A stretch of DNA of 40,888 nucleotides, taken from contig CAJXEJ010000018.1 of assembly GCA_913052475.1 (NCBI GenBank), forward strand, positions 1-40,888, read 5' to 3'. A model generated the notes under the pieces. It was not told where the DNA came from, ran no database searches, and worked only from the letters and a program-made list of their open reading frames with translations. How positions within the stretch are numbered: position 1 is the first letter of the stretch; every line of letters begins with the position of its first letter. The translations under genes and the position numbers were made by a program. This document shows positions 31,657 to 34,169 of this stretch, one piece after another. The DNA is from an uncultured Dehalococcoidia bacterium (lineage in GTDB: Bacteria; Chloroflexota; Dehalococcoidia; Lucifugimonadales; Lucifugimonadaceae).

Positions 31657-32832
31657 CTACGTCCCCACACCGCAAGACTGCAGCGCAGCGAGGATTTCGT
31701 CTGAAATCTCGGCAAGATCACCCGAGCTTGTCGCGATCACCGCGTTGGCAAGTGCTGCCGGATCGAGCTCGTTCGAAAGGCAGGTGAGTTGCTCGATAGT
31801 CAGTTCGCTGGCAGGAATAGGTGTTGCAGTAGGCTCTTCCGCCGGTTCCACAGGAATCGGACCTGCGCCATCGCCGATACCGCCATCCGGCTCGACTGGA
31901 ATAACGAACTCTCCGCTGCCACATTGTGCAAAGGCTTCTTGAAGTTCGGCAGGCGGTTGACCACCCTGGCCTCGAAGTAGAGTAGATGCATCGTCGCCGA
32001 GTGCCTCGGCCATACACTCCCGGAAATCGTCGCCCAGAGTTATTCCATCACCACGTCCGCCTCGACCGCCGCCGAAGATGCCATCATCTCCTCCGGGTCT
32101 CTCGCCATCACCAAAACGGAATCCGCCACCGATCCCTCCAAAGTCCAAGCCGCACTTCTCGAATGCGGCAAGTGACTCTTCTTCAAGACCCAGTCCGCTA
32201 CCCTGCCCAAGCTGGCCTATGCGATTTTCGCCGAGTTCTTCGGTCAGACATTCGCGAATCTCCGGATCGGCAAAACCGCCACCCGCGAGTCCGCCGCCTA
32301 AGGCTCCTCCGGGTCGAATGCCCTGCTCAACACCGCATGCCTCAAACGCAGCGGCTACGTCCGTTGGATCAGTAGACCGTAAAATCTCTCGATCAAACTC
32401 TCCTGATTCGCCCACAACGTCAATCCCAAGTTCGCCCGCGAGACACTCTTGTAGTTCAGGATCCGAGAAATCGGCCCTGGCTGGTGCAACGCCTCGGGTC
32501 GCTCCATCTGCGTCGACGCCACACGATTCGAGCATCGCTAATTCCTCAGCCCCAAGCCTGCCGAACAATTCAGGACCAACCGCGCCCGAATCAGGATCGA
32601 AGGCACCCCCCAGTTGCTCTGACAGGCACTCCAACACTTCGGGATCAGCGAGGGCTTCCCGTACGCTCAAACTAGATCCAGTATCGACGACCTGAGTCGC
32701 GACAGTAGGAATCGGAGTAGGTGGTTCGGCTGTGGGCTTTTCCGCGGCTGATTCGCACGCGATAGCAACCAGAGCGATCACGCTCGTTGCCGCGATAAGC
32801 AGCACGCCACGACCAATGGGAATTTTAGGCAT
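31657..32832 (-). CDS. Lipoprotein with five paired-cysteine repeats
   Basis: An exported protein of 391 residues and unknown function. Residues 1-26 are a lipoprotein signal (basic start, hydrophobic core, lipobox ending VAIAC with C26), followed by a Pro/Thr/Glu linker. The rest is five repeats of 50-80 residues. Each opens with an ECL-xx-ELG helix (DPEVLECLSEQLG; DPELQECLAGELG; DPEIRECLTEELG; DDFRECMAEALG; IEQLTCLSNELD) and closes with a helix ending in CG (LESCGVD; FEACGVE; FEKCGLD; FAQCGSG; LQSCGVG). That gives two cysteines per repeat, likely one disulfide each. A Gly-rich spacer sits between repeats 3 and 4. The protein is strongly acidic. The neighbouring lipoprotein carries the same kind of repeat. 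I know no name for this family. Confidence 0.88.
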   Translation of the reverse strand: MPKIPIGRGVLLIAATSVIALVAIACESAAEKPTAEPPTPIPTVATQVVDTGSSLSVREALADPEVLECLSEQLGGAFDPDSGAVGPELFGRLGAEELAMLESCGVDADGATRGVAPARADFSDPELQECLAGELGIDVVGESGEFDREILRSTDPTDVAAAFEACGVEQGIRPGGALGGGLAGGGFADPEIRECLTEELGENRIGQLGQGSGLGLEEESLAAFEKCGLDFGGIGGGFRFGDGERPGGDDGIFGGGRGGRGDGITLGDDFRECMAEALGDDASTLLRGQGGQPPAELQEAFAQCGSGEFVIPVEPDGGIGDGAGPIPVEPAEEPTATPIPASELTIEQLTCLSNELDPAALANAVIATSSGDLAEISDEILAALQSCGVGT

Positions 32833-32987
32833 ATGAAAGATCAGGCTCCCGAACTAGAAATCGATCCTTCAGGCACGTCCCGTGCAGACGTCCGTGCAAG
32901 CATTTGGCTGCCTGATACAGATCGAATGGATACATCATATTCAGTATGTTTTCAGGAAATATGAAGATTCCGAGAAGCCCGCTTGGC
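32833..32987. other. Short gap between the two lipoprotein genes
   Basis: 155 bases with no gene. It should hold the promoter of the downstream lipoprotein gene if it is not co-transcribed. TGCACGG-type inverted bits near 32873-32900 (GCACGTCCCGTGC) form a small palindrome. Confidence 0.4.
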
Positions 32988-34169
32988 TTATTGCACGACA
33001 GTAAGCAGATCGGCACACGCCTTGAGCGATCCGAGCGTGTCTTTGCCCTGGCACATCAGAACCATGTTCCCGGCAACCACATAGTCGAAGTACTTTGGGA
33101 ACCCGCACCGACCCACGTGGTGACCACCGCTCGAGTCGCACCGTCTTCGCTGTGCTAGCCCTTCCTTCCACCGCTGATCATCCTCGTACAGCGATGCGGC
33201 GGCACCAGATGCTTCGTTGGCGAAGTCAACCCCGACAGATTTAGCTGCTTCATGTGAAAAGTAGAACCGTGCTTCGTACTCAAGCCGTTTGTAAGGATCG
33301 ATCCCGTAGAACCCGTAGTGAGCCGAGCTCGCCTCTTCCAGCCCTTTTACATCGTAGGACTTTGACAGCTTGAACCCAATCGCCTCGAAATCAGCGACCG
33401 TGTATTTCCGCTCGGTGTCTTCAAGCCGAGAAATCAAACCTTCTGCGGAGAAATCGATTCCGCATGATTCAATTGCGTCTGTGAAGCCCAGAAGAAGGTC
33501 GCCACCGAGTAACTCGCCGTAACCATCGGCAAACGATTGACCCAGTTCGCCAACCATGCACAGTTCGTCTTTTGACGACGGACGACCGCTGGATCCGCTG
33601 CCACCGCCAGCATCCTCGCCTGCATTCACCCTCGCCAACGCCGCAAGTTCGTCGTTTGTCAGGCAGAGCGTGAACTCCTGAATAGCGATCTGGACGGGTT
33701 CACTCGGATCGTCGCCATCGCCCAAAACCAGTTCGGTCAGAATGCCCGTCGGAATGTCGGCAAGAAGCGACGCAACGCACGCCATCGAAGATCCGCTGAA
33801 CGTTCCCAGTTCATTCCGAATCTGGCCAGCTAGGAACCCGGCCACGAATTCGTTGGAAAAGCATCCAGTCAGTATGTCGTTCTCTTTTTCGCTCAACTCC
33901 GTTGTACCGGTGGCGAGTTCTTTCAGTCGGCTTTCACCCAACTCGGCCATGATGCACGCAACATCAGCCTCGGGCATCTGGCCGATAAACGTATCGAAGT
34001 CCTGCTCCGGTGACATTGTGATCACCGAGATAGCCGGAGTTGCTGTAGGAGCGGGTGTAGGAGTCGGGGTCGGAGGGGCGGGAGTGGGTTCGGCCGCAGT
34101 GCTTCCGCACGCAACAAACACGACGGCAAAGATCAGTACAAGCGATATCAGCATCGAGCTGCGGTTCAT
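32988..34169 (-). CDS. Lipoprotein with paired-cysteine repeats and a C-terminal domain
   Basis: A second exported lipoprotein (393 residues), upstream of the first on the same strand. The signal ends VVFVAC with lipobox C21, followed by a Pro/Thr linker (about 25-46). Three repeats of the neighbour's type follow: DVACIMAELGESRLKELATG to ILTGCFSNEF, SMACVASLLADIPTGILTEL to FTLCLTNDEL, and ELCMVGELGQSFADGYGELL to AIESCGID. Residues from about 250 form a different domain with four or five further cysteines (RRRCDSSGG, VGRCGFPK, VLMCQGK, LKACADLL), ending close to the C-terminus. The ATG has TGAGA six bases upstream. The function is unknown; it could be a surface binding or sensing protein paired with the neighbour. 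Confidence 0.87.
   Translation of the reverse strand: MNRSSMLISLVLIFAVVFVACGSTAAEPTPAPPTPTPTPAPTATPAISVITMSPEQDFDTFIGQMPEADVACIMAELGESRLKELATGTTELSEKENDILTGCFSNEFVAGFLAGQIRNELGTFSGSSMACVASLLADIPTGILTELVLGDGDDPSEPVQIAIQEFTLCLTNDELAALARVNAGEDAGGGSGSSGRPSSKDELCMVGELGQSFADGYGELLGGDLLLGFTDAIESCGIDFSAEGLISRLEDTERKYTVADFEAIGFKLSKSYDVKGLEEASSAHYGFYGIDPYKRLEYEARFYFSHEAAKSVGVDFANEASGAAASLYEDDQRWKEGLAQRRRCDSSGGHHVGRCGFPKYFDYVVAGNMVLMCQGKDTLGSLKACADLLTVVQ

What the first reader, a model, noticed from the sequence alone, without database searches (positions are those of the whole stretch)
31657..34169. Two adjacent lipoproteins built from a repeated paired-cysteine helical unit
Both proteins have a lipobox and a Pro/Thr linker, then repeated units opening with CL/CM/CI-xx-ELG and closing with a helix carrying a second Cys (usually CG). 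I count five units in one and three in the other, about 50-80 residues each. The second protein adds a separate Cys-containing C-terminal domain. Each unit looks like a small two-helix module pinned by one disulfide, repeated on a surface anchor. I cannot place it in a named family. It might be a lineage-specific surface scaffold, binder or sensor. The repeats are read directly; disulfides and role are inference.
Basis: partly seen in the sequence, partly recalled or inferred. Interest (0 to 1): 0.72.

Follow-up and report, generated by a model that had tools for sequence, protein, structure and literature searches.

The report
Disulfide-stapled helical hairpin stalk lipoproteins
Two neighbouring surface lipoproteins of an ocean bacterium (SAR202 group I, Chloroflexota) are built from a small paired-cysteine helical repeat that has no entry in Pfam or NCBIfam and that recurs in several classes of the phylum, often between the membrane anchor and a sensing, binding or enzyme domain, so it is probably a disulfide-stiffened stalk.

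Summary
The repeats are real. Protein A (31657-32832, minus) has five paired-cysteine units. Protein B (32988-34169, minus) has three, followed by a known Pfam domain, DUF6810. The host is genus Lucifugimonas (SAR202 group I, Chloroflexota). The B-A pair lies between leuS and an alcohol dehydrogenase gene in many relatives, where unit number varies and either gene can be lost. The unit has no Pfam or NCBIfam model and no PDB match. It is not confined to this lineage. A three-hairpin (six-cysteine) profile finds relatives across SAR202, in other Dehalococcoidia, and in other Chloroflexota classes. Some are fused to PQQ propellers, periplasmic ligand-binding proteins, LRRs, PPC domains, FKBP or a subtilase. 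In 71 of 77 sampled lipoproteins of this kind the cysteines after the lipobox are even in number, as expected if all are disulfide-paired. AlphaFold gives separate helical units in A, joined by disordered linkers. Best explanation: an exported, disulfide-stapled helical hairpin that works as a stalk or spacer, lifting heads from the membrane of these peptidoglycan-less cells. A is a head-less, beads-on-a-string version. The disulfides and the stalk role are inferred; Cys-Cys distances were not measured.

The parts
31657..32832 (-). Protein A, 391 aa lipoprotein with five paired-Cys helical units and no head
32755..32832 (-). A: signal peptide and lipobox (lipid-carrying Cys26)
   Evidence: sequence; conserved in 12 orthologues
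32653..32754 (-). A: Pro/Thr-rich linker
   Evidence: sequence; pLDDT under 50 over residues 1-54
32512..32646 (-). A unit 1 (C69-C104); aligned in only some orthologues
32323..32463 (-). A unit 2 (C130-C166)
32140..32268 (-). A unit 3 (C195-C227)
31909..32028 (-). A unit 4 (C273-C304)
31855..31899 (-). A: conserved linker motif PVEPDGGIGDGAGPI before the last unit
   Evidence: 73% mean identity over the linker, residues 308-343
31663..31800 (-). A unit 5 (C351-C387), the most conserved unit
   Evidence: 77% mean identity
32988..34169 (-). Protein B, 393 aa lipoprotein: three hairpins plus DUF6810 head
34107..34169 (-). B: signal peptide and lipobox (lipid-carrying Cys21)
   Evidence: sequence
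34020..34106 (-). B: Pro/Thr-rich linker
   Evidence: sequence; pLDDT under 50 over residues 1-45
33852..33998 (-). B hairpin 1 (C72-C103)
33645..33800 (-). B hairpin 2 (C131-C169)
33450..33572 (-). B hairpin 3 (C204-C236)
32997..33401 (-). B: DUF6810 head (PF20650)
   Evidence: E 2.8e-41; 78% mean identity among orthologues

Best explanation
The repeat is an exported helical hairpin of about 40-50 residues: the first helix carries one Cys, and the last helix ends with the second. The two cysteines most likely form an intra-unit disulfide (inferred). Hairpins occur singly on flexible Gly-rich linkers (A), as a three-hairpin six-Cys block (B and many relatives), or as long close-packed arrays with a 56-60 residue period. 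They mostly sit right after the lipobox and Pro/Thr linker, and before a head domain when there is one. The most likely job is a rigid or semi-rigid stalk (spacer) that carries heads away from the cytoplasmic membrane, through the surface coat of cells that lack peptidoglycan. In B the head is DUF6810. A is a head-less, beads-on-a-string relative whose partner is unknown. Shown: the repeats, conserved cysteines, even cysteine counts, domain fusions, change in unit number. Inferred: disulfides, stalk role, surface display.
For: Invariant unit cysteines. Even cysteine count after the lipobox in 71 of 77 sampled lipoproteins and in all 29 A, B and C orthologues counted. In A orthologues whole units come and go with both cysteines (8 or 10 in all), and G012 carries a duplicated unit 3 (sequence). 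AF2 gives the A units block-mean pLDDT of about 60-92 and the linkers mostly under 50, with the two cysteines in the same helix positions in all eight units. Repeat period of 56-60 residues in a long array (L194). Fusions to PQQ propeller, Peripla_BP_6, LRR, PPC, FKBP and subtilase. In B the head is more conserved (78%) than the hairpins (54-62%). VKOR, a disulfide-forming enzyme, is found in 14 of 19 genomes of the genus. The cultivated genus members encode no peptidoglycan synthesis and show an S-layer-like layer (PMC10444878).
Against: No measured structure and no Cys-Cys distance. A, C and about half of the 86 ORFs read have no head, so a pure spacer role is incomplete. In the FKBP and thioredoxin-like proteins the hairpins are C-terminal to the other domain. 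AF2 models rest on shallow alignments (12 and 9 sequences), and the B model is poor outside hairpins 1 and 2. Even counts among orthologues are not independent observations.
Confidence: 0.55

Rival explanations
1. The hairpins are themselves the binding module (for glycans, peptides or the surface coat), and the attached heads are accessory.
For: Many members consist of hairpins only (A, C, and about half of the 86 ORFs, which have 20 or fewer residues after the last unit). Unit 5 of A is the most conserved part of A.
Against: No conserved motif beyond Cys, Leu and the LG turn is shared between units. B's hairpin block is only 17-25% identical to distant members, more like a structural than a binding constraint. 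In B the head is better conserved than the hairpins.
Confidence: 0.2
2. Envelope-coat component: hairpin lipoproteins tether or build the S-layer-like coat of peptidoglycan-less Chloroflexota.
For: The cultivated SAR202 strains encode no peptidoglycan synthesis and show a layer outside the membrane (PMC10444878). Head-less arrays on lipid anchors with disordered linkers fit a tether.
Against: A and B can be lost singly or together within the genus, and the module was not found in most sampled Chloroflexota genomes. No proteomic evidence was available.
Confidence: 0.15
3. Redox or metal module: the paired cysteines cycle between thiol and disulfide, or bind metal or haem.
For: The Cys pair is the only invariant feature of the unit. 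One relative has a thioredoxin-like N-terminal domain by reading, without a Pfam hit (L209). VKOR genes lie next to DUF6810 genes.
Against: The paired cysteines are 31-38 residues apart in A and B, with no CXXC or CXXCH motif, unlike known redox or haem sites. The pattern fits static staples.
Confidence: 0.08

Closest known systems
DUF6810 (Pfam PF20650)
   Same: The C-terminal 135 residues of B are a member (141 bits, cut-off 25).
   Different: Most DUF6810 proteins of the genus are small stand-alone lipoproteins, about 18-21 matches per genome; B adds a three-hairpin stalk. The function of DUF6810 is unknown.
Stalk-plus-head surface proteins, such as Ig-like repeat stalks of Gram-positive adhesins (from general knowledge)
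   Same: Tandem small repeats of variable number between a cell anchor and a variable head.
   Different: All-helical and paired-cysteine, lipid-anchored, in Chloroflexota; no sequence relation was tested.
Twin-CX9C (CHCH) and alpha-hairpinin helical hairpins (from general knowledge)
   Same: A helical hairpin stapled by cysteines.
   Different: Those have two cysteines per helix in CX9C or CX3C spacing and two disulfides; here there is one Cys per helix and one possible disulfide.
Chloroflexota lipoproteins with PPC, LRR, PQQ or Peripla_BP_6 domains (L163, L164, L192, L198, L205)
   Same: Same hairpin module in the N-terminal part.
   Different: Different heads; the module carries no name in Pfam or NCBIfam.

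Membership tests
DUF6810 (PF20650) | Profile match above Pfam's gathering score over the whole domain | tested here: met
   B residues 257-391, profile 1-138 of 141, 141 bits against a cut-off of 25
Bacterial lipoprotein | N-terminal hydrophobic signal ending in a lipobox Cys | tested here: met
   By sequence, A ..LVAIAC26 and B ..VFVAC21, conserved in the aligned orthologues; no signal-peptide predictor was available
Three-hairpin six-Cys module defined here | Match to a profile built without the window's rows | tested here: met
   B 70.5 bits, E 2.4e-20 over residues 59-238; A 33 bits in total over five units; best of 4000 shuffles 9.9
Any Pfam or NCBIfam family, for the hairpin unit | Match over the curated cut-off | tested here: not met
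   No family over its cut-off on the hairpins of A, B, C or distant members
CHCH / alpha-hairpinin | Two cysteines per helix in CX9C or CX3C spacing | tested here: not met
   Intervals between successive unit cysteines in A and B are 26-47 residues
Known helical fold in the PDB | Significant structural match of the model | tested here: inconclusive
   Foldseek on A: best E 8.6. VIA-align: best Z 2.7 for B and 3.0 for A, all weak. No sequence-profile hit in the PDB
Disulfide-stapled hairpin | Intra-unit S-S bond by distance or chemical mapping | not testable with these tools
   Model coordinates not available; cysteine parity and whole-unit gain or loss only

The most novel reading that the evidence does not exclude
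A phylum-level, undescribed all-helical, disulfide-stapled stalk domain of Chloroflexota surface lipoproteins, the helical counterpart of Ig-like stalks. It would form rods or beads-on-a-string tethers that present sensing, binding and enzyme heads on cells that lack a peptidoglycan wall, and grow or shrink by whole-hairpin duplication.
Probability: 0.45. Interest if true: 0.68.

Novelty: new variant of a known kind. Interest (0 to 1): 0.55.

Why it matters
SAR202 bacteria are common in the ocean, and little is known of the proteins on their surface. A single unnamed repeat links many of their lipoproteins with recognisable heads, and gives a handle (profile, cysteine parity rule, domain boundaries) to annotate a large set of hypothetical proteins across Chloroflexota. 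Strains of the genus have been cultivated, so the idea can be tested.

Tried and rejected
A single-sequence scan of genome contigs with A found nothing. Foldseek and VIA-align against the PDB gave only weak matches for the two models; two mosquito D7 proteins appear at Z 2.2-2.7 and were not followed as meaningful. hmmsearch of A, C, module and DUF6810 profiles against PDB sequences gave no significant hit. A suspected likeness of DUF6810 to mycobacterial PknH-type sensor domains (from memory) got no support. A haem or metal site was set aside because there is no CXXC or CXXCH. An assembly-artefact reading was set aside because orthologues in independent assemblies, including a complete chromosome, keep the genes. 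Promoter and terminator scans were at chance level. Papers on DUF6810 or on such repeats in Chloroflexota were not found in the held library. Plasmid records hold no relative of one distant array. The module outside Chloroflexota was not tested by a genome-wide search.

Full report
Observation. Two minus-strand genes, B (32988-34169, 393 aa) and A (31657-32832, 391 aa), encode lipoproteins with a lipobox and a Pro/Thr linker. A carries five cysteine pairs, and B three pairs plus a four-cysteine C-terminal domain. Unit profiles built without the window's own sequences hit A and B far above composition-preserving shuffles. Substitutions concentrate at third codon positions.

Where it comes from. 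Orthologues with record titles include the complete chromosome of Candidatus Lucifugimonas marina JH1073, which falls in the same genus as the window's genome (G013). So the window is from SAR202 group I, class Dehalococcoidia. The paper on the cultivated strains says that peptidoglycan synthesis is not encoded and that electron microscopy shows an S-layer-like layer outside the membrane (PMC10444878).

Locus. In eight relatives B and A lie between leuS and a zinc alcohol dehydrogenase gene, in the same order; a ninth, on a short contig, has B, A and the dehydrogenase gene. Orthologues of A have four or five units, always with both cysteines of a unit. Which unit is missing differs: most four-unit forms lack unit 1, while G004 keeps a unit-1-like and lacks a unit-2-like one. 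G012 carries two copies of the unit-3 type (sequence). A is kept without B in G001 and G010, and in G005 B is truncated and A is missing. So A and B are neighbours but not obligate partners.

A wider family. A unit profile found a third lipoprotein family, C, with five hairpins, in most of the genus. The C profile matches 126 of 247 genomes of the order; weak matches in that list may rest on the signal and Pro/Thr linker alone. A stricter three-hairpin, six-cysteine profile matches 30 of 294 genomes sampled from the class and 17 of 400 from the phylum, including families outside the class. I extracted 86 such ORFs, chosen from those hits and not at random. Pfam finds other domains on several: FKBP (L155, L156), PQQ propeller (L160, L192, L205, L230, L236, L239), Peripla_BP_6 (L163, L164), LRR (L163, L192, L200), PPC (L198, L200, L204, L256), subtilase (L197). 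No Pfam or NCBIfam family covers the hairpins themselves above its cut-off.

Cysteine logic. Of 77 ORFs with a lipobox-like Cys before the module, 71 have an even number of cysteines after it; all 29 A, B and C orthologues do. The lipobox was called by a simple rule. Shared ancestry means the counts are not independent, but the sample spans several families and classes. A's units are separated by linkers predicted disordered, and the last unit stands alone behind a 35-residue linker, so pairing within the unit is the simplest reading. In the long array L194 cysteines alternate at about 33 and 23-27 residues, a period of 56-60; there the pairing partner cannot be told from sequence.

Structure. 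AF2 on shallow alignments gives A separate helical units (block-mean pLDDT about 60-92), with linkers mostly below 50; hairpins 1 and 2 of B are mostly near 80 and the rest is poor. In all eight units the first Cys lies within the first helix and the second at or just after the end of the last helix. Foldseek and VIA-align gave only weak matches, which does not show that the fold is new.

Mechanism. I favour a disulfide-stapled stalk or spacer. The module usually follows the lipid anchor, repeat number varies, heads are diverse, and in B the head (78% identity) is more conserved than the hairpins (54-62%). VKOR, a disulfide-forming enzyme, is found in 14 of 19 genomes of the genus. Against it: about half of the members read lack a head, and in the FKBP and thioredoxin-like proteins the hairpins lie C-terminal. 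Rivals are a ligand-binding hairpin, a coat-building tether, and a redox or metal module.

Novelty. DUF6810 is known. The hairpin repeat is unnamed in the libraries searched, and no paper was found in the held library. As a kind (repeat stalk on a surface protein) it is familiar; as an all-helical family of Chloroflexota lipoproteins with one cysteine pair per hairpin it looks new. Whether it occurs outside Chloroflexota was not tested.

Noticed in passing
L219 3942-5085 (G000:C5), and similar places in about nine more genomes: A VKOR gene lies beside, and convergent with, a stand-alone DUF6810 lipoprotein gene in most Lucifugimonas genomes.
   Followed up: partly
L117 1-4557: A protein of about 1500 aa has FtsX-like permease parts with ankyrin repeats and two DUF6810 domains between them; similarly long frames with DUF6810 exist in three other genomes.
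   Followed up: partly
whole genome G000 and relatives: DUF6810 is expanded to about 18-21 matches per genome in the genus but is found in only 7 of 118 sampled genomes of the order.
   Followed up: partly
31855-31899: The linker motif PVEPDGGIGDGAGPI of A recurs in an unrelated frame of another genus (L016).
   Followed up: no
L155, L156, L157: FKBP-type isomerase lipoproteins with a C-terminal hairpin array.
   Followed up: partly
L217 2786-5402, L218 2108-4696: The head-less hairpin lipoprotein C lies next to a cinA-like gene in two genomes, by reading.
   Followed up: no
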